DNA of 64,000 nucleotides, from contig NZ_NFLT01000002.1 of NCBI RefSeq assembly GCF_002161055.1, forward strand, positions 186,001-250,000, given 5' to 3'. Shown piece by piece: positions 1,613 to 17,436 of this stretch. This DNA is from Tyzzerella sp. An114 (GTDB taxonomy: Bacteria > Bacillota > Clostridia > Lachnospirales > Anaerotignaceae). The translations under genes and the position numbers were made by a program. Position 1 is the first letter of the stretch; each line of letters opens with the position of its first letter. The notes beneath the pieces are model-generated. The model was not told the DNA's origin and searched no databases. It worked only from the letters and a program-made list of their open reading frames with translations.

Positions 1613-2863
1613 TTAGGAGTTTTGTGTATTTGCTGATCTATACTTTCTTGTAACTCTTGACAATACAAGTGAAACAACAACACAAAGTAATGCCATTACA
1701 ATAGCATAGATAAACATCATGTTATAACCTGTTTTGCCTGCATATGTATCAAGCCATCCACCTATCATTGTGTACATAAATACGTCAGGTGTATAACCAA
1801 GGCAAGAAACTATACCAGAAACACGTCCTGTAAGTTCAACAGGAATTCCAGCATCATCAATAACTGCGAAGTACTGGCTTCTTACTGCATATATGAATAA
1901 TAATCCAAATACAAAGTTAACTATAACTGCATTAACAAGACCTGCTTCTGCTGGAAGGAAGAGGAATAATGCAAATGAAGCTGCAAGAAGAAGTGCACCG
2001 CCAACAATAACTTTAATACGTGAACCAATTTTATCGGCAAGGAAACCACCGATAATACCACCAACACCCTGAAGGAGATAACGTACACCACCAAGAGAAG
2101 CACTTGCTGTTGGTGAAAGTCCATAAACATTAACTGCATATGTATTAATATAACCTATAATTCCGTAAAGACTGTATGCTGTGAAAACAACAGCTACAAG
2201 TAACCAAACACGAGGTATTTTTAATGCACCGAACATACCTTTTGCAACCTGTCCGATACTCTGTGTCTGAGTTTCTGTTTTTGTATCTTCAATGAAGAAC
2301 CAGTTTAAAATACCTATTATGATAACTGATATAGCACATACTCTTATTGCCATAGCTGTTCCAAGAATTTGGTCTGAATAGTGAGCATAAGCTGCTGTCA
2401 TACCAAAAACAAGAACTGCGTTAAGTATACCACGAAGACCTTCCTGTAATCCGAAAAGACGTCCCTGTTCTGAGCTATCACCAAGCATACGAGTTGCTTT
2501 GATACATGCTGACCAGTATGTTATGATTGTAGAAACACCCATAAGTACGAATATTACACGTGCAACATTGTATGCAGGGAATGTGGAGAACCAAAGTCCT
2601 AAAATACCAGTTACAAGGAATGAAAATGTAAGAAGTTTTCTTGCTGAGAATTTATCTGCAACGATACCACCTACAAAATATGAGAATGTTGCCATTGTAG
2701 CGTAACCTGATGAAAGCATACCCATCTGAGCATTTGTAAGTTGCATTGCTTCCTGAATTTGAACATAGAAAGTTTCTCTTATGTATGGAAGCTGATAGAT
2801 AATACCGGCACCAGCTGCAAGAAGAAGAAGCGTACCATACTTTTTAATAAAAGCCTTGTTCAT
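1613..2863 (-). CDS. MFS transporter (sugar-phosphate/organic-acid permease type)
   Basis: 416-residue transporter with twelve hydrophobic segments and MFS-type loops (G-G-I-V-A-D-K-F-S-A-R-K after segment 2; G-G-F-L-A-D-K-I-G-S-R after segment 8). It is an inner-membrane permease; the substrate is not evident. The ATG at 2863 follows a good GGAGG. It is transcribed alone from a promoter at 3013-3041 through a leader RNA of the same kind that precedes the FAD-oxidase/Etf operon and the SDR-kinase operon, so it probably imports the compound those operons catabolise. A second, related MFS gene lies just upstream on the same strand. Class call is firm; substrate is unknown. Confidence 0.85.
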   Translation of the reverse strand: MNKAFIKKYGTLLLLAAGAGIIYQLPYIRETFYVQIQEAMQLTNAQMGMLSSGYATMATFSYFVGGIVADKFSARKLLTFSFLVTGILGLWFSTFPAYNVARVIFVLMGVSTIITYWSACIKATRMLGDSSEQGRLFGLQEGLRGILNAVLVFGMTAAYAHYSDQILGTAMAIRVCAISVIIIGILNWFFIEDTKTETQTQSIGQVAKGMFGALKIPRVWLLVAVVFTAYSLYGIIGYINTYAVNVYGLSPTASASLGGVRYLLQGVGGIIGGFLADKIGSRIKVIVGGALLLAASFALFLFLPAEAGLVNAVIVNFVFGLLFIYAVRSQYFAVIDDAGIPVELTGRVSGIVSCLGYTPDVFMYTMIGGWLDTYAGKTGYNMMFIYAIVMALLCVVVSLVLSRVTRKYRSANTQNS

Positions 2864-2901
2864 TTTTATACCTCCATTTTATTTAATTGTAATGAGTTCG
2901 T

Positions 2902-3006
2902 GAACTGTTGCTGCAGTCAACAGTTCTTTTGTTTTGTGAGCATAAAAAAAGAGAAGCAAGGCTATTGATATCAATAGCGTTACTTCTCTCTACACTCTTG
3001 TAACTT
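2902..3006 (-). promoter_or_regulatory. Leader RNA A: terminator/antiterminator attenuator plus GCAG-loop hairpin
   Basis: On the minus strand the transcript should begin at about 3006, directly at GTTAC (3004-3000). It continues with AAGAG and GAGAGAA, then GTAAC, a perfect CTATTGATATCAATAG hairpin, TTGCTTCTC and a run of seven T. GTAAC can pair with the 5' GTTAC or take part in the terminator stem GAGAAG-TAAC / TTGC-TTCTC, so the two folds exclude each other. Further down, a 9-bp perfect stem GAACTGTTG / CAACAGTTC (2902-2926) carries the loop ACTGCAG. The same architecture recurs at 4590-4727 and 14964-15067. A GlpP-type protein encoded at 13404 is the likely antiterminator (inference). Confidence 0.7.
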
Positions 3007-3012
3007 GTAATC

Positions 3013-3041
3013 AGTATAGAATATAGTTAAAATAAAATCAA
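3013..3041 (-). promoter_or_regulatory. SigA-type promoter of leader A / MFS gene
   Basis: TTGATT (-35, 3036-3041) and TATACT (-10, 3013-3018) on the minus strand with a 17-bp spacer. Predicted start at about 3006, at the leader's conserved GTTAC. Confidence 0.7.
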
Positions 3042-3121
3042 CACTTTTTTTGAAAAAATAAAAAATATGTTTAAAACTGATAAAAAATATACTTGATAAT
3101 TATACAAAACATACAATGAAT

Positions 3122-4339
3122 TTATTGTGATTTGTATTTTCTTTTGATAAGTAATGATGATGCTATTAAACCTATAAGAGATATAACAGCTGACATAACA
3201 AATACTATACTATAACCATATGTTTTGCAATTATCTAATATCCAACCACTCAATGAAAAATAAAATACATCAGGAGAATATGCCACAAAAGATATATAGC
3301 TTATTGCTACACCATAAAGTTTTCTTGATATTCCAGTTTCATCTATTGTAATTAGAGCCATACTTTTTCCACCATAAGCAAAAAAACATATCATTATTGA
3401 ACATATTATGGTCATTATAGGGTTTCTTGGAAAAATGAATACCATTATAAAAATAGTTGCTATATATAATATAAAAGATATTCTCATAAGTTTTGCTGAT
3501 GATTGAAGTTTATCTGTTATTGAACCGGCAATAGGTGCTGCTATTATTATAATAAGATACATTCTTACAACTGATATTGTGTTTAAAACATAATCTGGAA
3601 GATTAAAGTTATATGAAAGATATGGAAGGATGTATGTAAAATTTGCAACAGCTACATAATTTGCAAAAACTACTATTATAGTTAAAAATATATTTTTGTT
3701 TTTTACAACTGCCATTATTTGTTTTTTATCAAATTTTTTGCCTTCATCTTTTTCAGTATCTTTTATATCTTTTAAAGTTATAATTGAAAATATTGCAGAA
3801 ATAAATGTTAATATACCGTAAAATAAAAATAGAAATCTTATTTGGCTTTCAGAATTATTCATTAATGATATTATTTTAAAACCTATTATTGAAAATATAC
3901 TTCCAAAAATACTATTCATAAAAAAGAATGTGCTAAAAACTTTACCTTGATTTTCAGGATTGCCTGTATTATGAAGTATACTTAAATAAGCAGGATAAAA
4001 TGTTGCTCCAACGGTAAAACCTGCAATTCCAAACATTAATAGTATTAATGTATATGATGGCAAGCTTGCAAGAAACAGTGAAACAAATGAAGTTATCATC
4101 AAAGGAATATATATAAGTTTTTTAGATTGAAATTTCTTTAAAAAGAAAGCTCCGCAAAGATAAGAGAACATAGCCAGTATACCATACATACTATATATTC
4201 TACCTAGTTGATAATGGGTAAGATGTAATCCCTCAATCATTGTGGAATAATAAAGAGCTTTCATTACATAAAGATTATATATAAGATTATATCCTGCTGC
4301 TATTGATGTAATTACAAGCTTGTCTTTATGCTTTATCAA
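3122..4339 (-). CDS. MFS transporter, second copy
   Basis: 405-residue twelve-segment MFS permease, clearly related to the neighbour at 1613-2863: both have the early pattern G-x-x-Y-x-M-x-x-x-x-x-F-S-Y in segment 2 and Y-x-P-D-V-F-x-Y near segment 11. I take TTG at 4339 as the start because AAGGAGG lies nine bases upstream and no ATG fits. Substrate is not recognisable. Its 5' region has its own promoter and a terminator-like hairpin at 4362-4402, so it is probably also controlled by attenuation. Paralogy with the neighbour suggests either two related substrates or import and export of substrate and product. Confidence 0.82.
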   Translation of the reverse strand: MIKHKDKLVITSIAAGYNLIYNLYVMKALYYSTMIEGLHLTHYQLGRIYSMYGILAMFSYLCGAFFLKKFQSKKLIYIPLMITSFVSLFLASLPSYTLILLMFGIAGFTVGATFYPAYLSILHNTGNPENQGKVFSTFFFMNSIFGSIFSIIGFKIISLMNNSESQIRFLFLFYGILTFISAIFSIITLKDIKDTEKDEGKKFDKKQIMAVVKNKNIFLTIIVVFANYVAVANFTYILPYLSYNFNLPDYVLNTISVVRMYLIIIIAAPIAGSITDKLQSSAKLMRISFILYIATIFIMVFIFPRNPIMTIICSIMICFFAYGGKSMALITIDETGISRKLYGVAISYISFVAYSPDVFYFSLSGWILDNCKTYGYSIVFVMSAVISLIGLIASSLLIKRKYKSQ

Positions 4340-4361
4340 TTTAATACACCTCCTTAAAAAT

Positions 4362-4490
4362 AAAAAAAGAGTAATTTACATATATATGCAAACTACTCTT
4401 TTAACTCTAAAAGCTCTTAAGATAGCAAATAGCAATTTCTATATTTATAATGTTAAGTATATGATAATTTACTGCAATATTTAAAGTCAA
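4362..4490 (-). promoter_or_regulatory. Promoter and attenuator-like leader D of the second MFS gene
   Basis: Minus strand: TTGACT (4485-4490), 18-bp spacer, TATCAT (4461-4466). A leader of about 100 bases then ends in an inverted repeat AAAGAGTA / TACTCTTT (4362-4402) followed by a T run, only about 20 bases before the start codon. It shares the AAGAG/TAGAG flavour of leaders A-C. It lacks their GTTAC/GTAAC pair and the GCAG hairpin, so I treat it as a divergent relative or an unrelated attenuator. Confidence 0.5.
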
Positions 4491-4560
4491 TAATTAATAT
4501 AAAATTTACATTTGAAAAAGTGCACAAAAAATATGCTTAATAAATATAAAAAATATACAA

Positions 4561-4589
4561 TTGACAATAAACCAATAAAGTTTTATACT
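4561..4589 (+). promoter_or_regulatory. SigA-type promoter of the FAD-oxidase/Etf operon
   Basis: TTGACA (4561-4566), 17-bp spacer, TATACT (4584-4589). Start predicted near 4596, immediately before the leader's GTTAC at 4598-4602. Confidence 0.8.
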
Positions 4590-4727
4590 GTAACCAAGTT
4601 ACCGAAAGAGATTTGAGAGAAAAGTAACTGAGTGTGGAAATATAATCCACATTTAGTGTTGCTTTTCTCTTTTTTTATGTGTAATCATAGATATAAATTG
4701 TGCGCAGGTTTAAACTTGATTACACAT
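4590..4727 (+). promoter_or_regulatory. Leader RNA B: attenuator plus GTGCGCAG hairpin
   Basis: Contains GTTAC (4598-4602), AAAGAG, GAGAGAAAA, GTAAC (4624-4628), an inner TGTGG/CCACA hairpin, TTGCTTTTCTC and seven T (to 4676). The terminator stem GAGAAAAGTAAC / GTTGCTTTTCTC competes with GTTAC:GTAAC pairing. Downstream, ATGTGTAATCA (4677-4687) pairs with TGATTACACAT (4717-4727) and encloses GTGCGCAG (4700-4707). Exactly the same octamer lies in the matching hairpin of leader C. It precedes the FAD-oxidase start by 66 bases. Confidence 0.75.
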
Positions 4728-4793
4728 AACCTTTTGGTCGTGTCAATTATAAATTAATAATAATATTAATATAATGCATAGGAGGAAACGATT

Positions 4794-6248
4794 ATGGCAG
4801 CAATTATTTCAAGAGATAAGATAGTAGAAGGATTAGTAAACATTCTTGGTAAAGAAAACGTTATAACAGACGAAAAAGTATTAAAAGACAGCAGCATTGA
4901 CCGTTACAGAAAATATGAGCAGGTTATGGAAGTTTATACACAGCCAATTCCAGCTGCAGTAGTATATGTTCACAGTGCTGAAGAAGTTTCAGAAGTATTA
5001 AAATTCGCTAACGAAAATCAGATTAACGTAGTTCCAAGAACAGGACATTCAGCTATCGAGGGCGGACTTGAAACAGCATTAGAGGACTCAATCGTTATTG
5101 ATGGTTCTACAATGAACAAAGTTATCAAAGTTGACAAATATAACATGCAGGTAACATGCCAGTGTGGTGTTCCTCTTCAGGACCTTGACGATATGTTAAG
5201 AGAACAGGGATATACAACAGGACATTCTCCACAGTCAAAACCACTTGCTCAGATGGGTGGACTTGTAGCTACAAGAAGTATCGGACAGTTCTCAACACTC
5301 TATGGTGGAATTGAAGATATGATCGTTGGACTTGAAGCTGTATTCCCAAATGGTAAAATCTGCAAAATCAAAAACATCCCAAGAAGAGCAGCTGGTCCAG
5401 ACATCAGACACATCATCTGTGGTAATGAAGGTGCTATCTGCTTTATAACAGAAGTTACAGTTAAAATATTCAAATATCAGCCAGAAAACAACCGTTTCGT
5501 AGGATACAAATTAGATGACATGAAATTAGGTTTCGATTGCTTACGTGAAGTAATGGTAGCTGGATACAAACCATCAATCGCTCGTCTTTACGATGCAGCT
5601 GACGCAGCTATGCACTTCAGCAGCTGGCTTGAAGAAGGAAAATCAGTATTAATTTGGATGGCAGAAGGTCCTGCTGGTGTTACAGAAGCTACTGAAAAAG
5701 GTATCAAAGAATTAATGTCAGCTCATCCAGAATTAGAGCCAGTTGACCCTAAGATACTTGAAAAATGGTTCGCTGGATTAAACTGGGGTCCAGAACAGAT
5801 TGCTGAGGAAAGAGAAGAAATCAAAGCTACAAAGAATATCGGTATCACAACAGAAGTTTCAGGATGCTGGGATTGCATTTATGAAATCTACAAAACAGCT
5901 TGTGACAGAATAATGGAAGAAGTTCCAGACATGACATTAATGGGAGGACATTCTTCACACAGTTACATAAATGGTACAAACATGTACTTCGTATACTACT
6001 ACAATGTAGTTGATTGTCCACCAGAAGAAGAAATCAATAAATATCATGACAGAATTAACCAGATTATCTGCGAGCAGGTTCTTAAATATGGCGGATCAAT
6101 AGTTCACCACCACGGTCTTGGTAAAGCAAGAGCTAAATATGTTCACGAAGAATACGGTTCATCATTCTATATGTTAGACACATTAAAGAAAGCATTTGAC
6201 CCTAACGGAATTATGAATATGGGAACATTAATCCCACTTAGAAAGTAA
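4794..6248 (+). CDS. FAD-linked oxidase (GlcD/LctD-type 2-hydroxyacid dehydrogenase), copy 1
   Basis: 484-residue cytosolic flavoprotein with an N-terminal PCMH-type FAD domain (roughly residues 45-235; P-R-T-G-H-S-A-I-E-G-G near 80-90, G-G-L-V-A-T-R-S-I-G-Q near 155-165) and a C-terminal FAD-oxidase domain with the HHHGLG segment near 440. Such enzymes oxidise hydroxy acids (lactate, glycolate and relatives). The adjacent EtfB and EtfA genes mean the electrons go to an electron-transfer flavoprotein, as in anaerobic LctBCD complexes. Start ATG at 4794 follows AGGAGG. Codon use is rich in C-ending codons compared with the next genes, suggesting high expression. Substrate is not determined. 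Confidence 0.85.
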   Translation: MAAIISRDKIVEGLVNILGKENVITDEKVLKDSSIDRYRKYEQVMEVYTQPIPAAVVYVHSAEEVSEVLKFANENQINVVPRTGHSAIEGGLETALEDSIVIDGSTMNKVIKVDKYNMQVTCQCGVPLQDLDDMLREQGYTTGHSPQSKPLAQMGGLVATRSIGQFSTLYGGIEDMIVGLEAVFPNGKICKIKNIPRRAAGPDIRHIICGNEGAICFITEVTVKIFKYQPENNRFVGYKLDDMKLGFDCLREVMVAGYKPSIARLYDAADAAMHFSSWLEEGKSVLIWMAEGPAGVTEATEKGIKELMSAHPELEPVDPKILEKWFAGLNWGPEQIAEEREEIKATKNIGITTEVSGCWDCIYEIYKTACDRIMEEVPDMTLMGGHSSHSYINGTNMYFVYYYNVVDCPPEEEINKYHDRINQIICEQVLKYGGSIVHHHGLGKARAKYVHEEYGSSFYMLDTLKKAFDPNGIMNMGTLIPLRK

Positions 6249-7064
6249 TTGAATATACTTGGGTGCTTTAAAATAGTTCCTGACCTTGATATGCTTCCGG
6301 AAGATGACTGGGTCTATGATGAAAACTTTTACATAGATGTAAAGTATGTCAAAAATATGTGGAACTGTTTTGATGAAAGTGCTTTGGAAATGATGTTAAA
6401 GCTTTCTGATTTATCAGAAGGCTTTAACGTGCTGTTTAGATTTGAAGCACTTACAATAGGCAATGAAAAATGCGATTCCTACCTTAGAACTCTTTATGCT
6501 CTTGGGTATGGAAAAGCCGTTAGAGTTGAATGTAATGATGACCTTAGGTTCAGACCTGAATTAGTCGCAAGGTCTGTTGCCGGATACGTGAACAAAACAG
6601 GCGACAAAGATGTTATTGTTATGGGACGTCAGACTTCTGACGGTAATAATGAAAAAACACCTCTTATTCTTGCTGAATATCTCGGCTGGCCATGTATAAC
6701 AAATGTTATGAAAATGGAACCTTTTGATGATAATCACATAAAAGTAATAAGTGAGATTGACGAAGGTATATTGACACAAGTTGTAAAAACTCCTTGTGTA
6801 ATTTCTGTTGGAAATGTTGCGGAATCTTATTTAAGAGTTCCTACACTTAAAGACAGAATGAAACTTGGAAAACAACCAATAGAAATTTATAAGCCTGAAG
6901 ATTTAGGAGTAACTGATGAATTAGGACAAGCTACTGTTGAAATATGTGGTCTTGAAAAACCAGATAACGGTAGAGAAGGAATAATAATAGAAGGAAGTAC
7001 TCCGGCTGAAAAGGCTTTAAAACTTTATAATGAATATCTGAAAGAGAGGCTTGAAAAATTATGA
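6249..7064 (+). CDS. etfB: Electron transfer flavoprotein beta subunit, copy 1
   Basis: 271-residue EtfB-like protein. It pairs with EtfA to carry electrons from the upstream FAD oxidase to ferredoxin, NAD or quinone-type acceptors. The internal G-R-Q-T-S-D-G-N-N signature near residue 120 is the Etf beta nucleotide-binding stretch. The gene begins with TTG at 6249 directly after the previous stop, so translation is coupled. It overlaps the etfA start by four bases (ATGA). It differs considerably from the second EtfB at 9425, with an N-terminal insert around D-W-V-Y-D-E-N-F-Y instead of the usual loop, which suggests specialised pairing with its own oxidase. Confidence 0.82.
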   Translation: MNILGCFKIVPDLDMLPEDDWVYDENFYIDVKYVKNMWNCFDESALEMMLKLSDLSEGFNVLFRFEALTIGNEKCDSYLRTLYALGYGKAVRVECNDDLRFRPELVARSVAGYVNKTGDKDVIVMGRQTSDGNNEKTPLILAEYLGWPCITNVMKMEPFDDNHIKVISEIDEGILTQVVKTPCVISVGNVAESYLRVPTLKDRMKLGKQPIEIYKPEDLGVTDELGQATVEICGLEKPDNGREGIIIEGSTPAEKALKLYNEYLKERLEKL

Positions 7065-8005
7065 GATATCATGTATTTTTAAACGGATTTTCTGATGAAT
7101 TTGAAAAGCAATCTCTTGAAGTTTTAGGATTTATAAAAGAATGTTGCAGTGATATAGAAGAAGGAAAAACAATTATTGCTTGTAGAGAAAACAGTGATTT
7201 TGAAAAACTTTCAGTTTATGCACCTACAAATGATGTTGTTTTCATTACCTCTGATAGATATATACCGGAAAACATTTTAAATTCCTGTGAAAAATATATT
7301 GATGATGAGGCAATTCATATATATGGTTTTGATAATTTTTCTTCTGAAAACTCTGTGAGAATGTCTGTCCGAAAAAATGGAAGTTCTCTTGTGGGCGTAA
7401 GAAATATGAGTCTTTCAGATGATTGTATTTTTGGTAAAAAAATGATTTATTCAAATCATATGGAAGCAACATTCAAATTGAAAAAATCTCCTTATTTTAT
7501 TTCTCTGGCAAAAGGAATTTTTGAGGGACAGATTACAGAGGGAAATAATAAGAATATATTTATTGAGCAATGCATTTTAAATACATCAGATGAAAATGAT
7601 GTTTTATATTATAATATAGAAAAAGAAGACAAAAAAGAAGGACCGGAAAATGCAAAACTTCTTGTTGTTGCAGGTAGAGGGGCGAAAGATAAAGCATCTG
7701 TTGAGAAACTTGAAGAATTTGCTGAAAGTATGGGCGGAAAACTTGGCGTAAGTAGACCGGTTGCCATGAGTGCTTGGGCTCCTATGGATAAACTTGTTGG
7801 AGTTTCAGGTATAATGGCAAAACCTAAAATATGTATTACTGCCGGAGTTTCAGGTTCTGCTGCTTTTTATGCCGGAATAGAAAAAAGCGATTTTATAGTT
7901 TCTATAAATACAGATGAAAAATCTGCTATAATAAAGAAATCGAATGTTGCTGTCGTTGATGATTTTAAAGCAATTGTTGAAGAACTCAAAAAATATATTA
8001 AATGA
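7061..8005 (+). CDS. etfA: Electron transfer flavoprotein alpha subunit, copy 1
   Basis: 314-residue EtfA-like protein. The C-terminal FAD-binding domain is clear: L-L-V-V-A-G-R-G-A-K-D-K near 205-215, L-G-V-S-R-P-V near 230-240, and the G-V-S-G-S-A-A-F-Y-A-G-I loop near 265-275. The N-terminal third is divergent. It starts in an ATGA overlap with etfB and ends 16 bases before the next start, in a tightly coupled operon. Expected role: with EtfB, electron acceptor for the flavin oxidase encoded at 4794. Confidence 0.82.
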   Translation: MRYHVFLNGFSDEFEKQSLEVLGFIKECCSDIEEGKTIIACRENSDFEKLSVYAPTNDVVFITSDRYIPENILNSCEKYIDDEAIHIYGFDNFSSENSVRMSVRKNGSSLVGVRNMSLSDDCIFGKKMIYSNHMEATFKLKKSPYFISLAKGIFEGQITEGNNKNIFIEQCILNTSDENDVLYYNIEKEDKKEGPENAKLLVVAGRGAKDKASVEKLEEFAESMGGKLGVSRPVAMSAWAPMDKLVGVSGIMAKPKICITAGVSGSAAFYAGIEKSDFIVSINTDEKSAIIKKSNVAVVDDFKAIVEELKKYIK

Positions 8006-8021
8006 GGAAGGTGTGGTCATA

Positions 8022-9428
8022 GTGGCTGAAAAAAGTGGACTTATATTTCCAATGAGTGATAAGTATGAGGAGTATCTAATAGATGAGTCGAAATTTACAG
8101 GAAATGCGGAAAGTATATCATTTCCAAAAAATGAAGAAGAAATAATTGAGATACTCAAAGAAATGAAAGAAAAAGGTACACCTGTTACAATTCAAGGAGG
8201 AAAAACTGGAATTGTAGGTTCTGCTGTGCCTTTAGGTGGTCATATAATGAACCTTTCTTACATGAACAGTGTAAAAGGTTATGAAATACTTGATGATGAA
8301 ACTGGTCTTATAACAGTTGAGCCTGGCATAAATCTTATAGACCTTAAAAAGGAAATACTTAGAATTTTTAAGGAAAAAGCACTTTTTTGGCCACCTGAAC
8401 CAACCGAAACATCAGCTACTGTTGGTGGAATATGTGCCACTAATGCTCAAGGAATAAGTGGTTTTGTTTACGGAAATGTACAAAAATATATTAAATCGTT
8501 GAGGTTAGTTAGTTCTAATGGTATAATTAATATAATTTCTGACAACGATAACCCTGAATTTTTTGACAAAGTGATGGGAAAAGAAGGAATTACAGGTATA
8601 ATAAGCGAAGTAACTTTAAAACTTATTAAAAAGCCACAAGAAGTTTGGGGTATAAGTTTCTTTTTTGAGACTGAAGAGGATGCTGGTAATTTTACAGATG
8701 CTATTAAAAATAATATACCAAAATCAGATACTGCTTTTATAGGAGCTTTTGAATATATTGATAGAAATTCTATAAACCTTATTGAAAAAAGAAAAGCGGA
8801 TATGGCAAAGATAAAAGAATTGCCTGATATAGACAGCAATTTTGCCGGAATGTGTTATATTGAAATACATGGTGATGATGAGGGAATAGAAGAAATAGCA
8901 GGAGAACTTATGGAAACTGCTGTTATGTATAATAGTGACCCAGATATTGCTTGGGCTGTTTCAGGAGAGACAGAGGTGGAAAAAACAAGGGCTTTTCGTC
9001 ATGCTGCACCGGAAACAGCAAATCTTTTCATTGAAGAAAAAAGACGTGATGATAAGAGAATTACAAAATTGGGAACAGATATGTCAATAGATGATGAAAG
9101 TTTTTCTCAAATTTTAAAAGAATATAGAAGTAGTCTTGAAAGTTCAGGTCTTAAAGGTTGTGTTTTTGGTCATGGCCTTGAAAATCATCTTCATGTAAAT
9201 ATTTTGCCTGAAAACTATGATGAATATGTTAAAGGTGTAGAGCTTATAAGAAAATGGGCTTCTGATTATAAGAGTAAAAAAGGTAAAATAATATGTGAAC
9301 ATGGAATAGGAAAGCTTAAAAAACAGATACTTTCAGATTTACTTCCAAAAGATTATATTGATGAGTGTAAAGCTCTCAAAGATGAATTTGATAAAGATAT
9401 GATATTGAATAGAGGTAATATTTTATGA
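8022..9428 (+). CDS. FAD-linked oxidase (GlcD/LctD-type), copy 2
   Basis: 468-residue flavoprotein of the same superfamily as the gene at 4794 but only distantly similar to it. FAD domain motifs: G-G-K-T-G-I-V-G-S-A-V-P near 60-70 and A-T-V-G-G-I-C-A-T-N-A-Q-G near 130-142. The C-terminal domain contains F-G-H-G-L-E-N-H-L-H-V (metal/substrate His) and C-E-H-G-I-G-K. I choose GTG at 8022 because GAGGAAGG lies about ten bases upstream; longer readings overlap etfA deeply. It is followed by its own EtfB and EtfA, so the operon carries two complete oxidase-Etf triplets. Probable D-lactate/glycolate-type oxidoreductase; substrate is unknown. Confidence 0.83.
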   Translation: MAEKSGLIFPMSDKYEEYLIDESKFTGNAESISFPKNEEEIIEILKEMKEKGTPVTIQGGKTGIVGSAVPLGGHIMNLSYMNSVKGYEILDDETGLITVEPGINLIDLKKEILRIFKEKALFWPPEPTETSATVGGICATNAQGISGFVYGNVQKYIKSLRLVSSNGIINIISDNDNPEFFDKVMGKEGITGIISEVTLKLIKKPQEVWGISFFFETEEDAGNFTDAIKNNIPKSDTAFIGAFEYIDRNSINLIEKRKADMAKIKELPDIDSNFAGMCYIEIHGDDEGIEEIAGELMETAVMYNSDPDIAWAVSGETEVEKTRAFRHAAPETANLFIEEKRRDDKRITKLGTDMSIDDESFSQILKEYRSSLESSGLKGCVFGHGLENHLHVNILPENYDEYVKGVELIRKWASDYKSKKGKIICEHGIGKLKKQILSDLLPKDYIDECKALKDEFDKDMILNRGNIL

Positions 9429-10225
9429 GAATAGCAGTTTTTATGAAACAAGTTCCGGCATATTCTCAAGGAAATATGGACGAAAAAACAGGTGTTATAA
9501 TAAGAACAGGACTTCCTTCTATTGTCAATGTTTATGATTTGGCAGCTTTAGAAACTGCTTTGAGAATAAAAGAAAAAATAGGCGGGGAAGTAGTTGTTTT
9601 TACAATGGGACCTGATAAAGCTGAAGATGTAATCCGTGATGCTTTCGCAATGGGAGCAGATGACGGATATTTGATATGTGATAGAGCTTTTGCTGGTGCT
9701 GATGTTCTTGCAACATCATACACTTTGACACAAGCATTAAAATCAACAGGGAATTTTGACATTATATTATGCGGCAAGCAAACCACTGACGGAGATACTG
9801 CTCAGGTGAGCGGTGCTGTTGCAAAATGGATGAACATACCACATATGAACTGGATAAATGAGCTTTTAGAGATTACGGAGAGAGACATACAGGTCAAATG
9901 CCAGTTAGATGGAAGGCTGTCTGTAATACAGGCAGCCTATCCTTGTCTTTTATCTGTTGAAAAGTCCATATTCACTCCGAGAATGCCTTCTTTAAAACTT
10001 AAAATGGCAAGCAGAAAAAAAGAGATTAAGAGAATAACTCTTGAAAATCTTTCTGATAAAGATGAAAACAATTATGGTCTCAAAGGTTCTGCTACAAGAG
10101 TAAGAAAAATTTTCCCTCCTGAAAGAACAGCAAAGAGAGATGTTGTTACAAAGGACGGAAAAGAGGCTTCACAATATATTTTAAAAATATTAAATAATCT
10201 TGATACTTGTGAGGAGGGTGAATAA
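9425..10225 (+). CDS. etfB: Electron transfer flavoprotein beta subunit, copy 2
   Basis: 266-residue EtfB with canonical features: start M-R-I-A-V-F-M-K-Q-V-P, Y-D-L-A-A-L-E-T-A-L near residue 40, and the signature G-K-Q-T-T-D-G-D-T-A-Q-V near 118-129. It overlaps the preceding oxidase stop by four bases (ATGA) and is followed two bases later by etfA. This copy is closer to bifurcating-type Etf beta subunits than the copy at 6249 (judged only from the classical N-terminus). Function: electron carrier for the oxidase at 8022. Confidence 0.88.
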   Translation: MRIAVFMKQVPAYSQGNMDEKTGVIIRTGLPSIVNVYDLAALETALRIKEKIGGEVVVFTMGPDKAEDVIRDAFAMGADDGYLICDRAFAGADVLATSYTLTQALKSTGNFDIILCGKQTTDGDTAQVSGAVAKWMNIPHMNWINELLEITERDIQVKCQLDGRLSVIQAAYPCLLSVEKSIFTPRMPSLKLKMASRKKEIKRITLENLSDKDENNYGLKGSATRVRKIFPPERTAKRDVVTKDGKEASQYILKILNNLDTCEEGE

Positions 10226-10227
10226 TA

Positions 10228-11220
10228 ATGAATATTTCAGAAAAAGTACATTCCTCCAGTGGTATATTGGTTTATTTTGAAATTTTTAAAAATGAAATTC
10301 GTCCTGTAAGTTTTGAACTTTTAGGTGAGGCATACAGACTTTCAAAAAAATCAAATGAAGCTGTTCATATTGTTGCTGTGGGAAAAGATATTGATTTTGT
10401 GAGAGAAAAAATTAAAGGATTTCCCGTAAAATCAGCTTATTTATATGAGACAGATAAATTTTTTCAGCCTGATATATATGAGAAGGCTTTGGAGGATTGT
10501 ATAGACAAACTTAATCCTTCAATTGTACTTATAGGAGGAACAGCAGAAGGTAGAGCACTTGCTCCAAGACTTGCTGTTAATTATAGAACAGGACTTACAG
10601 CAGATTGTACAGAACTTGATATTGATGAAAATGGCAATCTTTTGCAAATTAGACCGGCTTTTGGCGGAAATATAATGGCTAAAATAGTTACAGAAAATAC
10701 AAGACCACAGTTTGCTACTGTTCGTGAAAAGGTTATGCAGCCTGTAAAACCTGATTTTGTTGAAAATACTGATTTCCTTGTTCAAAATCTTGATGTTGAA
10801 GAGAGCAGTATGAAGATTTTGAATATAGAAGATACTGCTGAAGAAGATAGTATTGTAAATCAGAATATACTTGTTGTTGCAGGAAGAGGAGTTAAAAAGA
10901 AAGAAGATTTGGATATGCTTAGAGAGCTTGCAGAGCTTCTTGGAGGAAAACTTGCCTCAAGTCGTGCCCTTGTAGAGAAAGGTTGGATGACCCATAAAGA
11001 GCAGATAGGACTTTCGGGAAATACTGTTTGTCCTAAATGTATGATAACTTTTGGGGTTTCTGGTACGGTTCAGTTTATGGCCGGAATGAAAACAACTCCT
11101 AACATAATTGCTGTAAATTCTGACCCTAATGCAAGAATTTTTGAAATTGCACATTATCCTATATGTGCTGACTTGTATGATGTTGTGCCAGAACTTATTA
11201 AAAGCCTTAAAGGCTTATAA
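10228..11220 (+). CDS. etfA: Electron transfer flavoprotein alpha subunit, copy 2
   Basis: 330-residue EtfA. The FAD domain shows V-V-A-G-R-G-V-K-K-K-E-D-L near 215-227, L-A-S-S-R-A-L-V-E-K-G-W near 245 and I-T-F-G-V-S-G-T-V-Q-F near 272-282, with a terminal N-S-D-P-N-A-R-I-F-E-I-A-H-Y region, all typical. Start ATG at 10228 follows GAGGAGGG. It forms the second oxidase-EtfB-EtfA triplet of this operon. Confidence 0.88.
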   Translation: MNISEKVHSSSGILVYFEIFKNEIRPVSFELLGEAYRLSKKSNEAVHIVAVGKDIDFVREKIKGFPVKSAYLYETDKFFQPDIYEKALEDCIDKLNPSIVLIGGTAEGRALAPRLAVNYRTGLTADCTELDIDENGNLLQIRPAFGGNIMAKIVTENTRPQFATVREKVMQPVKPDFVENTDFLVQNLDVEESSMKILNIEDTAEEDSIVNQNILVVAGRGVKKKEDLDMLRELAELLGGKLASSRALVEKGWMTHKEQIGLSGNTVCPKCMITFGVSGTVQFMAGMKTTPNIIAVNSDPNARIFEIAHYPICADLYDVVPELIKSLKGL

Positions 11221-11249
11221 TTTTTTAATATTAAAAAAGGAGTAAAGCA

Positions 11250-11771
11250 ATGCTTCATTTTGAATATTCCTTAAAAAGCCCACAGATAGAGGAAAGTCTT
11301 CTGTGTTTAAATTGGAAAAGAGAAGGGCTTTTTAAGAGGTTAAATATTTATATTATGACAGTGTTGGGTATACTTTTACTATTTTTCTATATTAGAAATC
11401 CAGGATATATTGTTATTGGCTTTGTATTGGTCATTTTAATTCTTTCCATGTTTTTTATATTGTACATACCGGGTTTTTTGAGAAAAAGGAAAGCCATAAA
11501 AATAGCTTCTGAAAGAGGTATATATAAAATATGGCTTAATGAAAAAGGAATAACTTTCGGTGATGAACGAAAGTTTGTAAGCTTTTCGGATAATAAAGTT
11601 ATTTTTTTAGAGTCAGAAAACATCTATACAATAAAATGTGGTTATGATGTTTTCTGTATCCCTAAAAATATATTTAATAATTCCGATAAAGAGCGTTTTA
11701 TCTCTATTATGGATAAAAATAATATCCATAAAATCAAGATAAAAACAGGAAGGGAGGCAAACAATGGATAA
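11250..11771 (+). CDS. YcxB-like membrane protein
   Basis: 173-residue protein with two adjacent membrane helices (about residues 33-78) followed by a short soluble domain (I-W-L-N-E-K-G-I-T-F-G, then V-F-C-I-P-K-N-I-F near 140) that resembles the YcxB-type C-terminal domain. Function of the family is unknown. ATG at 11250 follows AAAGGAG. It overlaps the BCCT transporter start by eight bases, so it is part of the operon and may serve the transporter (inference only). Confidence 0.6.
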   Translation: MLHFEYSLKSPQIEESLLCLNWKREGLFKRLNIYIMTVLGILLLFFYIRNPGYIVIGFVLVILILSMFFILYIPGFLRKRKAIKIASERGIYKIWLNEKGITFGDERKFVSFSDNKVIFLESENIYTIKCGYDVFCIPKNIFNNSDKERFISIMDKNNIHKIKIKTGREANNG

Positions 11772-13369
11772 ATTTTCTAATGAGAAAACAATAGATTTGT
11801 CAGTAAAATGGGTGGTTTTTTTACCTCCTTGGATATTACTTGTTGCCATGGTTGCAGTTAGCCTTGTAAATGGAGACCTTTTCCTTTCAAGCCTTAATGC
11901 TGTTACAAGCTGGATACTTGATAATTTTGCATGGCTTTTTAATGCAACTGTTATATTTTGTATATTTACAGTTATTGCTGTATATATATCACCTCTTGGT
12001 AGAGTGCGTATAGGTGGCAGAAAAATGCGTCCTATAATGTCTTTTACAAATCATTACATGGATAACTCTCTGTACAACTGTTGCTGCAGGGATTCTTTTC
12101 TGGGCTTGTGCAGAACCTATGTATCATTTGTATGCACCAGCAAAGTTTTCAGGTGCAGAACCGGGAAGTCTTGAGGCAGCATTTTTTGCTATGAAAACAA
12201 TGCTTCTTGAATGGACTTGGTCTCCTTATGCTATTTATACTGTTGCAACTCTTACTTTTGCTTTCGTTTTCTATAATATGAAAGCTAAGTATTCAATAGG
12301 CTCTGCTCTTATACCTCTTTTTGGAGAAAAGGTTACAAAGTATAATACAATTATAGACGTTGTATGTCTTTTTGCTCTTGTTGCAGGTATGGCAGCGTCT
12401 CTTGGAACAGGTACACTTACAATAGGTGGAGGAATTGAAAGAGTATTTGGCATAAAGAGTGCACCGTTATCTTGGGGTGTTATAATAACTGTAATTGTTA
12501 TAACATTTGTTATATCAAGTATTTCAGGTGTAATGAAGGGTATTAGAATACTTTCAGATATAAATGCAAAGGTTTATATGGTACTTTTAGTATTCCTTCT
12601 TATATTTGGACCTACTGCTTTTATGCTTAATTTTACAATGGAATCTCTTGGAGCTTACATATCAGACTTCTTTAGAATGAGTCTTTATACAGGTGAAATA
12701 ATGGGTGACTCATGGGCAAAGAGTTGGCCTATATTCTACTGGTGTAACTGGCTTGCATGGACTCCTATAACAGCTGTATTTTTAGGTAAAATACTTAGAG
12801 GATATACAATAAGAGAAGCTATAATTTGTAACTTTGTTATACCTTCAGTTTTTGCTACAATATGGATGGGACTTTTCTCAACAGCAGCTATATATTATGA
12901 ACTTAACGGATTTGGTTTCTATGACATTATGCTTCAGAAAGGCTCTGAGTCTGTTGTATATGCTGTTTTTGACCAGCTTCCTCTTGCTATAATAGTAATA
13001 CCATTTTATCTTTTTATTGTATTTATTTCATTTGTTACTGCATCTGACTCAAATACTAATGCTATGGCTGGACTTTGTACAGAAGGCATTACACAGGAAG
13101 AACAAGAGTCTCCTGCATGGCTTAAAGCTGTATGGGGAGTATCTATTGCTCTTATGACATGGATACTTATAAGTTTTGCTGGAATTGACGGAATAAAAGC
13201 GGCTTCAAATCTTGGCGGCTTCCCTAATATGTTCCTTGTAATATGTATGGCTGCGGGACTTTTGAAAATAGCTAAAAACCCTCGAAAGTATTACCAATAT
13301 AAAGAGGATTATGACGAAAAAGGTAATCCTATAAAATCAGAGCGTTTACCTATTGAGGAGACAGAATAA
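11764..13369 (+). pseudogene. BCCT-family transporter, split by a +1 frameshift
   Basis: Betaine/carnitine/choline-type secondary transporter, about 534 residues if repaired. The first frame (from ATG 11764) has two membrane helices and ends prematurely at 12174. The second frame carries the rest to 13369, including G-I-L-F-W-A-C-A-E-P-M-Y-H and the tryptophan-rich Y-W-C-N-W-L-A-W-T-P signature of BCCT carriers. Removing one A at about 12058 joins ...S-F-T-N-H-Y to W-I-T-L-C-T-T and restores the family pattern. It is either a real inactivating insertion or a sequencing error; the remainder of the gene is clean. In its operon it would import a zwitterionic substrate for the Etf-linked oxidases (inference). 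Confidence 0.75.
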
Positions 13370-13403
13370 GAGCTCTTCTAAAAACAGGAGGATATTAAAT
13401 AAT

Positions 13404-13979
13404 ATGGCAATGACAATAAAACATTTTATGGAATCAACAGATATATGTCCGGTTATACCTGCTATAAAAGGCGATGAATGGATTGAACCAGCAAAAAATT
13501 CTGATTCAGATATTGTGTATATACTTTATGGTGATATATGCAATATTGCAGATATAGTTGATGAGCTTAAAGAAGCTGGAAAAAAGGTTATAGTACATAT
13601 AGACCTTATTGTTGGACTTTCTCCAAAAGAAATAAGTGTTGATTTTATAAAAAAATATACCAAAGCCGATGGTATTATAAGTATGAAACCGTCACTCATA
13701 AAACATGCCAATGAAGTTGGTCTTTTTACAATACAAAGATTTTTTATGATGGACGTTATGACATATAGAAATATAGAAAAACATGTAAAAGCAAGTAACC
13801 CTGATGTTGTTGAATTTATGCCTGCCGGTCTTACAAAGGTAATACATTACCTTATGGAAGGTATAGAAAAGCCTGTTGTTGCAAGTGGTCTTATATTGGA
13901 TAAAGAAGATATAATGGGAGCTTTAAAAACAGGTGCTGTGGCTGTTTCAACAACAAAAATAGAACTTTGGGACTGCTGA
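13404..13979 (+). CDS. GlpP-family transcription antiterminator
   Basis: 191-residue protein of the glycerol-uptake-operon antiterminator (GlpP) family: a TIM-barrel-like soluble protein with C-P-V-I-P-A-I-K near residue 14, H-I-D-L-I-V-G-L-S near 74, D-G-I-I-S-M-K-P-S near 95, M-P-A-G-L-T near 137 and V-A-S-G-L-I-L near 155. In Bacillus subtilis GlpP binds the leader of glp mRNAs when glycerol-3-phosphate is present and prevents termination. Here it sits among catabolic genes, not glpF/glpK. Three leaders with identical attenuator architecture lie within 12 kb (2902-3006, 4590-4727, 14964-15067). It is the natural candidate to control them, and the ligand may be another phosphorylated compound. 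I choose ATG at 13404, preceded by AGGAGG. Confidence 0.8.
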   Translation: MAMTIKHFMESTDICPVIPAIKGDEWIEPAKNSDSDIVYILYGDICNIADIVDELKEAGKKVIVHIDLIVGLSPKEISVDFIKKYTKADGIISMKPSLIKHANEVGLFTIQRFFMMDVMTYRNIEKHVKASNPDVVEFMPAGLTKVIHYLMEGIEKPVVASGLILDKEDIMGALKTGAVAVSTTKIELWDC

Positions 13980-14011
13980 TTTTATTATATTTATTTTTAA
14001 GGTGAGATTTT

Positions 14012-14896
14012 ATGAGAGCAAATCTTCAGTGTTATTACTGCTGTATCAGAAAAATAGAAGGTCTTCTTAATCAATATAATGTTTCTGATACTGATAGTAT
14101 AGAGATAATAAAAGATGTTTTTAAAATAATGTCTGAATGTGATGACAATATCAGTGCGCCTGTCTTAATGAATAAGACAATGCTTGTTCTTGAAAATAAA
14201 TTAGGTGTTACAGATACATATAAAGACGCTAAAGAGAAGTATAATAAACTTCTTATTGAAAGAGAAGATGAGTTTTTTAACATAGTTATGAACTCTGATA
14301 ATATTTTTGAGTCAGCTGTAAAATGTGCCATAACAGGAAACTATATAGATTTTGGTGCAATGGACACTGTTGACGAAGGAAAATTAAATGAACTCCTTGA
14401 AAAGAGAGAAGAAATAAAGCTTTCATCTGATGAGCTTTCAAATTTGAAGGATGATATTGAAAAGGGCAAAAACCTTCTTTATATTACCGACAATGCCGGT
14501 GAAATTGTTTTGGATAAGGTTTTTATAAGAGTTCTTAAAAAATTGTATCCACATTTGAATATAAAGGTTATGGTTAGAGGTGTGCCAACACTTAATGATG
14601 CAACAATAAAAGATGCGTTAGAAATATGTATGAATGATTTTGCACAGGTTATTTCAAATGGTACATCTATACCTGGAACACAGATTGAAGTCCTTTCAGA
14701 TGAGGCTAAAAAAGCTGTTTATGAAGCTGATTTATGTATTGCAAAAGGACAGGGTAACTTTGAAACATTAAGAGGTTCAGGAATTAATGTGTATTATATG
14801 TTCCTCTGTAAGTGTGATTTGTTTGTTAAAAAATTTGGAGTTGAGAGATTTACACCAGTTTTGGCAAATGAAAAAAGAATTGTGCAATATGCATAA
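14012..14896 (+). CDS. DUF89/ARMT1-like metal-dependent phosphatase
   Basis: 294-residue protein with an N-terminal C-Y-Y-C-C-I-R-K motif (residues 7-14), the metal-site segment I-T-D-N-A-G-E-I-V-L-D near 153-163, and I-A-K-G-Q-G-N-F-E-T-L near 245-255. These are hallmarks of DUF89 damage-control phosphatases, which hydrolyse reactive or misphosphorylated sugar phosphates and nucleotides. As the last gene before promoter C it closes the Etf operon. A phosphatase here fits a pathway that makes a phosphorylated intermediate (kinase at 15965) and may need to dispose of by-products. SurE at 17437 could have the same job. Confidence 0.78.
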   Translation: MRANLQCYYCCIRKIEGLLNQYNVSDTDSIEIIKDVFKIMSECDDNISAPVLMNKTMLVLENKLGVTDTYKDAKEKYNKLLIEREDEFFNIVMNSDNIFESAVKCAITGNYIDFGAMDTVDEGKLNELLEKREEIKLSSDELSNLKDDIEKGKNLLYITDNAGEIVLDKVFIRVLKKLYPHLNIKVMVRGVPTLNDATIKDALEICMNDFAQVISNGTSIPGTQIEVLSDEAKKAVYEADLCIAKGQGNFETLRGSGINVYYMFLCKCDLFVKKFGVERFTPVLANEKRIVQYA

Positions 14897-14929
14897 AAAT
14901 TTTGATATTTATTTGAGTATTTAGTATTA

Positions 14930-14958
14930 TTGACAATGTGATACAGTAGGCTTATAAT
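14930..14958 (+). promoter_or_regulatory. SigA-type promoter of the SDR-kinase-surE operon
   Basis: Consensus TTGACA (14930-14935), 17-bp spacer, TATAAT (14953-14958). Start predicted near 14965, at the leader's GTTAC (14966-14970). Confidence 0.85.
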
Positions 14959-14963
14959 AAAGT

Positions 14964-15067
14964 CAGTTACTAAAGAGTACGAGAGAGAGTAACTTCTATC
15001 TAATATTGCATAGATGGAAGTTGCTCTTTTTTTGTCCAATTTTGTATGGTGCGCAGATACAAATTGG
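14964..15067 (+). promoter_or_regulatory. Leader RNA C: attenuator plus GTGCGCAG hairpin
   Basis: AGTTACT near the 5' end is exactly complementary to AGTAACT 17 bases later (antiterminator). The second copy also starts the long terminator stem AGTAACTTCTATCTA / TAGATGGAAGTTGCT, followed by seven T. Between them lie AAAGAG and GAGAGAG as in leaders A and B. The second hairpin pairs CCAATTTTGTAT (15036-15047) with ATACAAATTGG (15057-15067) and holds GTGCGCAG (15049-15056) in its loop, identical to leader B. Confidence 0.78.
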
Positions 15068-15139
15068 AGTTTGAGTCCTCTTTAATACATCTTTAAAACT
15101 TTAAAAAATATAATTTTCGAGATTACGGAGGTATTTACA

Positions 15140-15925
15140 ATGAGCTACAATATTAATGATTTTTCACTTGATTTCTTTAACTTAAAAGGTAAAAACGCAA
15201 TAGTAACAGGCGGAAACAGCGGATTAGGACAGGCTTTCGCTCTTGCTCTTGCAAAAGCAGGTGCAAACATTTTTACATTCGCTTTTGTAGATGATGACGG
15301 AACAACAAAAAAATTAATCGAAGACTGTGGTGTTAAATACACATTCATGCAGGGAGACCTTACAGAAGATGGTATGTGCGATAAAATCGCTGAAAAATGT
15401 GTTGAAACATACGGAAGCATTGATATACTTGTAAACTGTGCTGGTATCTGTAAAATAGCTGACGTTCTTGAGTTCGGAAGAAAAGAATGGGACCCAATGA
15501 TAGCTATCAACCTTACAGGAGCATTTGATTTAAGCCATGCAGTTGCTAAATATATGATTCCACAGAGAAGTGGTAAAATCATCAACATTTGTTCATTATT
15601 CTCATTCCTTGGTGGACTTGGCTCACCTGCATACGCTGCAATGAAAGCTGGTTTAATGGGACTTACAAAAGCTTATGCTGATGAATTAGGAAAATACGGA
15701 ATTACAGTAAACGGTATCGCTCCAGGATACTTCCAGACAAGCATGACAACAGGAACAGGTAGTGCAAACGATGAAAAATTCATCAAAATCAAAGAGCATA
15801 TTCCAGCTGACCGTTGGGGAGAAAGACAGGACCTTATGGGAACAATGGTATTCCTTGCAAGCCACGCTTCAGACTATGTAAATGGTACACTTGTTGTTGT
15901 TGATGGTGGATACTTAGTAAGATAA
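15140..15925 (+). CDS. Short-chain dehydrogenase/reductase (sugar-acid or polyol type)
   Basis: 261-residue NAD(P)-dependent oxidoreductase. Rossmann motif T-G-G-N-S-G-L-G-Q near residues 23-31, N-C-A-G near 99-102, the catalytic Ser near 150 in I-C-S-L-F-S, and Y-x-x-x-K (Y-A-A-M-K, near 164-168). Overall layout resembles KduD/IdnO-like dehydrogenases that act on ketoses and sugar acids. First gene of a three-gene operon with an FGGY kinase and SurE behind leader C. A route oxidation/reduction -> phosphorylation -> cleavage is implied, but the substrate is not identified. Codon use points to strong expression. Confidence 0.85.
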   Translation: MSYNINDFSLDFFNLKGKNAIVTGGNSGLGQAFALALAKAGANIFTFAFVDDDGTTKKLIEDCGVKYTFMQGDLTEDGMCDKIAEKCVETYGSIDILVNCAGICKIADVLEFGRKEWDPMIAINLTGAFDLSHAVAKYMIPQRSGKIINICSLFSFLGGLGSPAYAAMKAGLMGLTKAYADELGKYGITVNGIAPGYFQTSMTTGTGSANDEKFIKIKEHIPADRWGERQDLMGTMVFLASHASDYVNGTLVVVDGGYLVR

Positions 15926-15964
15926 TTTCCTTAAAAAATATTTCGAAATCAGGAGATGAAACAA

Positions 15965-17395: not shown

Positions 17396-17436
17396 TTAAA
17401 ATAAATTAAAGGTTTTCGGAAAGAAAGGTGAACAAC

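What the first reader, a model, noticed from the sequence alone, without database searches (positions are those of the whole stretch)
2902..15067. Three transcription units share one leader RNA with competing GTTAC/GTAAC/GTTGC pairings
Leaders A (minus, 2902-3006), B (4590-4727) and C (14964-15067) each begin at GTTAC, carry AAGAG and GAGAGA, then GTAAC, and end in a terminator with a TTGC arm and seven T. Stem cores are conserved while inner loops vary, and each starts a catabolic transcription unit. GTTAC:GTAAC and GTAAC:GTTGC exclude each other, so this is a built-in antitermination switch. It defines a regulon of MFS transporter, oxidase/Etf operon and SDR-kinase-SurE operon.
Basis: partly seen in the sequence, partly recalled or inferred. 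Interest (0 to 1): 0.85.

Follow-up and report, generated by a model that had tools for sequence, protein, structure and literature searches.

The report
GlpP-type RNA switches controlling three operons
Three operons of an unnamed Clostridia bacterium begin with the same small RNA switch, which is most likely opened by a relative of the glycerol regulator GlpP encoded in one of those operons, so an old glycerol switch seems to have been copied and re-aimed at another, still unidentified, nutrient.

Summary
Leaders A, B and C share GTTAC / AAGAG / GAGAGA / GTAAC / TTGC-arm / T7 (3 matches, 0 in 100 shuffles). Leaders of ordinary glycerol (glp) operons share the plan: short complementary arms, a purine loop with two GAG blocks, a terminator that reuses the second arm. 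It appears more weakly in 40 same-phylum loci picked by their GlpP gene. No Rfam family reached its cut-off in the window. Best reading: GlpP-family antitermination by a paralogue that left glycerol and controls its own catabolic cassette. The genome has three GlpPs; the second cassette's leaders keep the plan with other arm letters. Gene content suggests a quaternary-ammonium, perhaps glyceryl-ether, substrate. Protein binding, ligand and termination are untested. Known mechanism; new regulon and RNA variant.

The parts
2979..3004 (-). Leader A antiterminator box: GTTAC-AAGAGTGTAGAGAGAA-GTAAC
2944..2991 (-). Leader A intrinsic terminator (reuses GTAAC; ends in 7 T)
   Evidence: box + terminator 2944-3004
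3013..3041 (-). Promoter A, TTGATT-17-TATACT
   Evidence: located by string; consensus match by eye
2897..2931 (-). Second hairpin of leader A, loop ACTGCAG
1613..2863 (-). MFS transporter (MFSa), target of leader A
4362..4425 (-). Candidate fourth, diverged leader (arms CTAT...GTAG by eye, terminator, 7 T) before the second MFS gene
   Evidence: orthologs: G002 (L048) ACTAT/GTAGT, L056 AGAAC/GTTCT. One search did not list the window's own copy
3122..4339 (-). Second MFS transporter (MFSb)
4561..4589 (+). Promoter B, TTGACA-17-TATACT
4598..4628 (+). Leader B antiterminator box: GTTAC-CGAAAGAGATTTGAGAGAAAA-GTAAC
4615..4676 (+). Leader B intrinsic terminator
4687..4721 (+). Second hairpin of leader B, 9-nt loop TGTGCGCAG
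4794..6248 (+). OX1: FAD oxidase nearest, among solved structures, to alkyl-DHAP synthase; HHHGLGK motif
6249..8005 (+). Etf beta (6249-7064) and EtfA (7061-8005)
   Evidence: for Etf beta; EtfA assigned by position, not searched against a family library
7944..9428 (+). OX2: GlcD-type FAD oxidase (ORF start uncertain)
9425..11220 (+). Second Etf pair
   Evidence: 9425-10225; 10228-11220 assigned by position
11764..13369 (+). BCCT betaine/choline/carnitine transporter, split over two frames in the window
   Evidence: families searched for 12119-13369 only
13404..13979 (+). GlpP paralogue (G3P_antiterm), proposed regulator; ORF listed from 13353
14012..14896 (+). ARMT1-like (DUF89) damage-control phosphatase
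14930..14958 (+). Promoter C, TTGACA-17-TATAAT
14966..14993 (+). Leader C antiterminator box: GTTAC-TAAAGAGTACGAGAGAGA-GTAAC
14981..15033 (+). Leader C intrinsic terminator
15036..15070 (+). Second hairpin of leader C, 9-nt loop GGTGCGCAG
15140..18249 (+). SDR dehydrogenase (15140-15925), FGGY kinase (15956-17395), SurE phosphatase (17428-18249): targets of leader C

Best explanation
The leaders are GlpP-type antiterminator RNAs for a paralogous, non-glycerol GlpP regulon. Transcription starts just before GTTAC. Without signal, GTAAC pairs with the downstream TTGC-containing arm, a strong intrinsic terminator forms and transcription stops before the genes. With signal, the GlpP paralogue encoded in unit B, loaded with a phosphorylated metabolite (most simply the product of the cassette's FGGY kinase, as G3P is for ordinary GlpP), binds the purine loop with its GAG blocks and holds GTTAC:GTAAC closed, so the terminator cannot form. 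All three units, including glpP itself, are then expressed (positive feedback). Shown here: the mutually exclusive pairings, their conservation with compensatory change, the link to a GlpP gene, and the same plan in ordinary glp leaders. Inferred: start site, protein binding, ligand and direction of control.
For: GlpP is encoded in unit B (PF04309, 205.7 bits; relatives of solved structures 3kts and 1vkf). Cassette genes (at least OX1, MFS, SDR and FGGY) sit beside a GlpP in other Clostridia, one Bacillus and five Listeria, with boxes upstream of MFSa, OX1 and SDR in Clostridia, OX1 and SDR in Bacillus, OX1 in Listeria. Arms change together: GTTAC/GTAAC, GTTGC/GCGAC (Listeria, Bacillus), GCGTC/GACGA and GCGTT/GACGC (C45 paralogue), AGAAC/GTTCT (L056). 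Arms 1:2 pair 5/5 in 24 of 26 cassette and 25 of 26 other boxes, which were partly picked for pairing. A4, 49 boxes, same caveat: 93.3% of cells paired against 78.2% shuffled and 30.5-58.2% for slid partners; covariation 0.448 against 0.190 shuffled, 0 of 500 as high. Tests that do not select on pairing: terminators at GlpP-type genes have a competing upstream arm in 74% (n=134) against 46% with shuffled upstream sequence, other genes 47% against 44% (n=222); loop-first, flanks complementary in 54 of 119 target, 269 of 3327 genic and 36 of 411 other intergenic loops, and in held-out loci 13 of 40, 123 of 1219 (p 1.4e-4) and 18 of 176 (p 8.6e-4), or 13 of 27, 23 of 219 and 7 of 39 with another loop rule and 4-bp arms. 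Of five cassette genomes searched with PF04309, two (G145, G148) hold only the cassette GlpP. In five genomes model R1 gave 9 hits at E<=1: 8 at cassette leaders and 1 at the truncated second leader of G021. In B. subtilis GlpP with G3P disrupts leader terminators at the glpD, glpFK and glpT promoters, and induction is lost without glpP (PMC9604022, passages).
Against: No binding, termination or expression data exist. Most cassette leaders keep the same GTTAC arms, so independent covariation within this leader family is limited (8 distinct arm pairs in 26 boxes). Model R1 did not generalise: 1 hit, E 4.6, in 40 held-out loci, and at E<=1 it missed known cassette leaders of its own five genomes. 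More than half of the held-out target loops lack complementary flanks by my rules. The own genome's ordinary glpP leader fits the box poorly (5-nt loop). G021 has an orthologous leader but no GlpP match (draft, 91% complete).
Confidence: 0.86

Rival explanations
1. A metabolite-binding riboswitch: the leader RNA itself senses a small molecule and chooses between antiterminator and terminator without protein.
For: Two mutually exclusive pairings before a terminator, shared by catabolic units.
Against: The part before the terminator is only a 5-bp hairpin with a 16-21-nt purine loop, no multi-helix aptamer. It is worth -0.3 to -2.2 kcal/mol against -23.9 to -29.8 for the terminator. No Rfam family reaches its cut-off in the window. 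The element accompanies a GlpP gene and a like element occurs at ordinary glp operons.
Confidence: 0.05
2. Another RNA-binding antiterminator acts (BglG/LicT type or an ANTAR protein), and the nearby GlpP is coincidental.
For: A small hairpin overlapping a terminator resembles RAT/BglG systems (recalled); Rfam bglG-cis-reg matched leader C at 18.2 bits, far below its cut-off of 80.
Against: GlpP is beside the cassette in Clostridia, Bacillus and Listeria, and a like box precedes glp genes. Genes for BglG-type or ANTAR proteins were not searched for, neither genome-wide nor in the cassettes.
Confidence: 0.05
3. The leaders are constitutive attenuators, or recent copies of one leader, with no regulation; the similarity is by descent only.
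For: The three window leaders share exact arm letters.
Against: Inner loops and flanks differ while the box is kept. Conservation reaches Listeria and Bacillus with paired changes of the arms. The C45 cassette has the same plan with different letters.
Confidence: 0.04

Closest known systems
GlpP / glpD, glpFK and glpTQ leaders of Bacillus subtilis (G3P-dependent antitermination)
   Same: PF04309 protein; leader between promoter and gene with an intrinsic terminator (PMC9604022, passages); at glp operons read here also short arms around a loop with two GAG blocks.
   Different: Targets are not glycerol genes; cassette GlpPs form two supported clades of their own; the letter after the last GAG is A in 23 of 26 cassette boxes but C or T in 18 of 26 others (post hoc); a second hairpin follows the terminator in the window. 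The B. subtilis leaders themselves were not read here.
BglG/LicT RAT antiterminators
   Same: Small protein-stabilised hairpin overlapping a terminator (recalled).
   Different: Protein family and RNA differ; Rfam bglG-cis-reg 18.2 bits against a cut-off of 80.
Second GlpP cassette of the same genome (C45)
   Same: SDR, MFS, FGGY, OX1, Etf, GlpP, divergent BCCT; two leaders with the same plan.
   Different: Arms GCGTY/GACGM, loop AGATKC...; SDR to GlpP in one operon instead of separate units.

Membership tests
GlpP-dependent antiterminator leader | A GlpP (G3P_antiterm) protein encoded in the genome, ideally linked | tested here: met
GlpP-dependent antiterminator leader | Intrinsic terminator between promoter and first gene | tested here: met
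   (by sequence and folding only)
GlpP-dependent antiterminator leader | Box shared with leaders of ordinary glp operons (not a published definition; derived here) | tested here: met
   against it, model R1 failed on held-out loci and the own genome's glpP leader fits poorly
GlpP-dependent antiterminator leader | G3P (or other ligand) dependent binding and antitermination by GlpP | not testable with these tools
   Needs experiment
GlpP-dependent antiterminator leader | Targets in glycerol/G3P metabolism | tested here: not met
   MFS, FAD oxidase/Etf, SDR-FGGY-SurE; hence 'GlpP-type', a paralogous regulon. A glycerol-like substrate is not excluded
BglG/LicT RAT element | Match to the Rfam bglG-cis-reg model | tested here: not met
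   18.2 bits for leader C, cut-off 80
Known riboswitch or other Rfam family | Match at gathering score | tested here: not met
   0 matches in the window; weak matches only in 14930-15145 and 2860-4800. glp leaders of other genomes were not run against Rfam

The most novel reading that the evidence does not exclude
GlpP is a family of re-aimable RNA switches rather than a glycerol regulator only: duplicated GlpPs acquire private loop and arm codes and new ligands. In this cassette the ligand is a phosphorylated glyceryl ether of a quaternary ammonium compound, for example the headgroup of betaine lipids. It would be imported by BCCT or an OpuA-type system, phosphorylated by the FGGY kinase, oxidised by the SDR to a DHAP ether and split without oxygen by an enzyme related to alkyl-DHAP synthase. 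The second hairpin would be a separate RNA element acting on the read-through mRNA.
Probability: 0.15. Interest if true: 0.88.

Novelty: new variant of a known kind. Interest (0 to 1): 0.62.

Why it matters
[quoted passage not shown] A sequence definition of the GlpP box would help to predict its regulons, suggests that GlpP paralogues run non-glycerol pathways, and points to a genome with three GlpPs in which RNA-protein specificity could be dissected. The cassette is also a lead to a catabolic pathway for which the searches listed no matching title.

Tried and rejected
Model R1 (boxes) was expected to find glp leaders in held-out genomes; it gave one weak hit, probably because the arms vary freely. 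The loop-first and arm-competition tests were used instead. MAFFT of whole leaders misaligned leader C, so boxes were aligned alone. Whole-leader models were not built. I considered that leaders A-C are recent duplicates; rejected because of distant orthologs. I considered a GlpP position near the glycine-rich stretch at the C-terminal end (ASG for AGG): suggestive only (S in 14 of 19 cassette rows, 8 of 69 others). Whether the arms are read by the protein or only needed for pairing was not resolved. No structure prediction was made. Literature searches for the cassette and for betaine-lipid headgroup catabolism showed no matching title or abstract start in the listings (0, 8 of 8 and 12 of 133 papers shown); none of those papers was opened. 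One search (glyceryl ether cleavage, 10 of 124 shown) gave nothing usable.

The window itself was not. A4 holds 49 of 55 boxes (left out: L059_SDR, and the GLPP boxes of L077, L088, L117, L129 and L047), A5 44 of those 49 (left out: both L046, L078, L123, L070_orf); identical boxes from close relatives were not repeated. One search examined 52 of 55 boxes (5-nt arms only); its third-arm and terminator columns are crude because the first TTTT was taken as the T-run, so terminator energies are quoted. The second-hairpin alignments A6 (11) and A7 (5) were hand-picked from the 21 of 69 leaders with the loop motif. The 40 held-out stretches were picked by hand from the hit list, for spread over families and for long contigs.
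Full report
What is there. The window holds three leaders with the same plan: 5' arm GTTAC, a purine loop with AAGAG and GAGAGA, a middle arm GTAAC, a variable stem-loop, a third arm with TTGC and seven T. The short pattern occurs three times and in none of 100 shuffles. Each box begins 8-9 nt after a -10 hexamer (consensus judged by eye). The leaders, second hairpin included, fold far better than shuffles (z -5.3 to -7.1). The 5'/middle-arm hairpin alone is worth -0.3 to -2.2 kcal/mol and the terminators -23.9 to -29.8, so the RNA alone should terminate.

The regulator is at hand. The ORF at 13353-13979 (start probably 13404) is a GlpP: PF04309, 205.7 bits, related to solved structures 3kts and 1vkf. 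It lies in unit B, so leader B would control its own regulator. The genome has three GlpPs: this one; one in an ordinary glp operon (C3: glpP, glpK, glpF, glpA); and one in a second cassette (C45: SDR, MFS, FGGY kinase, FAD oxidase, Etf, GlpP, with a divergent BCCT gene). Both C45 transcripts start with leaders of the same plan but other letters: GCGTC-AGATTCAAGGAGAAA-GACGA and GCGTT-AGATGCAGAGAAGAAA-GACGC, each followed by a terminator that reuses the middle arm.

The leaders are conserved. One scan of genome contigs with a GlpP alignment kept the best 80 of 244 loci. Cassette genes (OX1, Etf, BCCT, SDR, FGGY, SurE, MFS) surround the GlpP in several Clostridia and in Bacillus sp. DNRA2; five Listeria have a smaller set (OX1, GlpP, MFS, SDR, FGGY). 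Boxes precede cassette genes in 19 of 20 cassette loci, the window included: MFSa, OX1 and SDR in most Clostridia, OX1 and SDR in Bacillus, OX1 in Listeria. The exception, L058, shows a cassette-type GlpP without other cassette genes. Arms in Listeria and Bacillus are GTTGC/GCGAC; before the second MFS gene in L056 they are AGAAC/GTTCT with a third arm AGAAC. In five genomes model R1 gave 9 hits at E<=1: 8 lie at cassette leaders and 1 at the second G021 leader, which runs into other sequence after GTAAC; other known cassette leaders of these genomes fell below that threshold. Of the five cassette genomes searched with PF04309, two, G145 and G148, have no other GlpP.

Ordinary glp leaders share the plan. 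Upstream of glpA, glpK and glpP in other loci stand boxes such as TTACC-AAGAGACATGAGCAA-GGTAA and TTTGC-AAGAGATTTTGAGCCAA-GCAAA with overlapping terminators. A scan for the complete plan gave 75 sites at score 26 or more against 2.5 in block-shuffled sequence; some of the 75 are second readings of one leader or lie inside genes. Because that scan requires pairing, I also ran tests that do not. Terminators at GlpP-type genes have a competing upstream arm in 74% of 134 cases against 46% with shuffled upstream sequence; at other genes 47% against 44% of 222. Choosing loops only by their GAG blocks, the flanks are complementary in 54 of 119 target leaders, 269 of 3327 genic and 36 of 411 other intergenic loops.

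Held-out test. PF04309 was searched in 199 genomes of the same phylum (unnamed; presumably Bacillota); 80 had a match over the cut-off. I took 40 stretches around GlpP genes, picked by hand before any leader was looked at. The complete-plan scan gave 14 sites at score 26 or more against 1.4 in shuffled sequence; 4 of the 14 lie inside ORFs and 5 stand directly before a recognised glp gene. Loop-first, 13 of 40 target loops had complementary flanks against 123 of 1219 genic (p 1.4e-4) and 18 of 176 other intergenic (p 8.6e-4); with another loop rule and 4-bp arms 13 of 27 against 23 of 219 (p 8e-6) and 7 of 39 (p 0.014). Typical boxes are TGGC-GGAGAACTGGAGA-GCCA and AGGT-GGAGAATTGGAGAAA-ACCT. 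Against this, model R1 found only one weak hit there, and more than half of the target loops fail the flank rules.

Covariation counted. On 49 aligned boxes 93.3% of cells pair, against 78.2% shuffled and 30.5-58.2% for slid partners; 39 cells are changed on both sides against 12.8; covariation 0.448 against 0.190, 0 of 500 shuffles as high. These rows were partly selected for pairing, so the figure is supportive, not independent.

Specificity. Cassette GlpPs fall in two supported clades, 12 clostridial rows (99/95) and 7 rows from Bacillus, Listeria and C45 (99/96; the C45 row has a long branch), and differ from other GlpPs at several positions (Y or W at 149 in 19 of 19 cassette rows, other residues in the 69 others). 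The letter after the last GAG of the loop is A in 23 of 26 cassette boxes and C or T in 18 of 26 others (post hoc, not corrected for kinship). This suggests that each GlpP reads its own loop.

A second RNA element. Between terminator and start codon, window leaders B and C and some relatives have a hairpin with a 9-nt loop N-GTG-YR-CAG; leader A and some relatives have one with loop ACTGCAG. The loop motif was seen in 21 of 69 leaders examined, 19 of 41 cassette and 2 of 28 others; none of the Listeria, Bacillus or C45 leaders has it. In 11 hand-picked copies of the first type 92.2% of stem cells pair (slid 30-57%), covariation 0.675 against 0.203; in 5 of the second 88.6% and 0.857 against 0.277. 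In the own genome model R2 hits only leaders B and C at E<=5 (150 of 2227 candidates scored); in 84 loci its 12 hits at E<=1 are its 11 training rows plus one before the L056 SDR gene. It would be present only in read-through mRNA. Function unknown; mRNA stability or translation control is a guess.

A candidate fourth leader. The second MFS gene (3122-4339, minus) has a terminator with possible arms CTAT/GTAG at 4362-4425 (by eye); the orthologs are clearer (G002 ACTAT/GTAGT; L056 AGAAC/GTTCT).

What the cassette may do. Among solved structures OX1 is nearest to alkyl-dihydroxyacetone-phosphate synthase (1.7e-44; glycolate oxidase 1.6e-29), and its HHHGLGK aligns with HHHGVGK there; HHHGxGK is in 18 of 18 OX1 proteins examined, one of them (L053) a duplicate. 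In L062 the BCCT position holds a glycine-betaine-type ABC transporter (OpuAC). The FGGY kinase is nearest to autoinducer-2 and glycerol kinases. Together this points to a quaternary ammonium compound with a glycerol-like part, phosphorylated and oxidised to a DHAP-like intermediate. This is inference, offered as the bold reading.

Known or new. GlpP antitermination at glp leaders is known in B. subtilis: three promoters with a GlpP binding site and a terminator in the 5' UTR, GlpP activated by G3P, induction lost without glpP (PMC9604022, passages). The 1996 and 1998 papers on the glpD leader were seen only as reference titles. [quoted passage not shown] Searches of the open library (4, 12, 15 and 0 papers listed) showed no paper on a GlpP box family or a non-glycerol GlpP regulon; most subscription journals are not held. 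Hence: known mechanism, new regulon and RNA variant.

Noticed in passing
window 4687-4721 (+), 15036-15070 (+), 2897-2931 (-): Covarying second hairpin downstream of each terminator, loops NGTGYRCAG or ACTGCAG; model R2 (first type) hit only cassette leaders in the own genome and 84 loci.
   Followed up: partly
window 4362-4425 (-): Possible diverged fourth leader of the same plan before a second MFS gene.
   Followed up: partly
L046 5330-5730 (G000 C45): Second GlpP cassette in the same genome with two divergent leaders of different arm letters.
   Followed up: yes
window 11764-13369 (+): The BCCT transporter gene is split over two reading frames here; in the same-genus genome G002 the BCCT match starts about 1.6 kb before GlpP in one frame. 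Sequencing error or real break not decided.
   Followed up: no
L062 7171-9905: OpuA-type glycine-betaine ABC transporter in the place of BCCT, hinting at the substrate.
   Followed up: partly
L059 12296-15469 (-): Two sulfatases beside BCCT next to a related cassette.
   Followed up: no
L049 1-140: A second leader in G021 runs into different, possibly mobile-element, sequence just after GTAAC.
   Followed up: no
window 4520-4533 (+), upstream of leader B, and orthologs: A GTGCACAAAAA-like word recurs upstream of the OX1 promoter in related loci (read); possible DNA operator.
   Followed up: no
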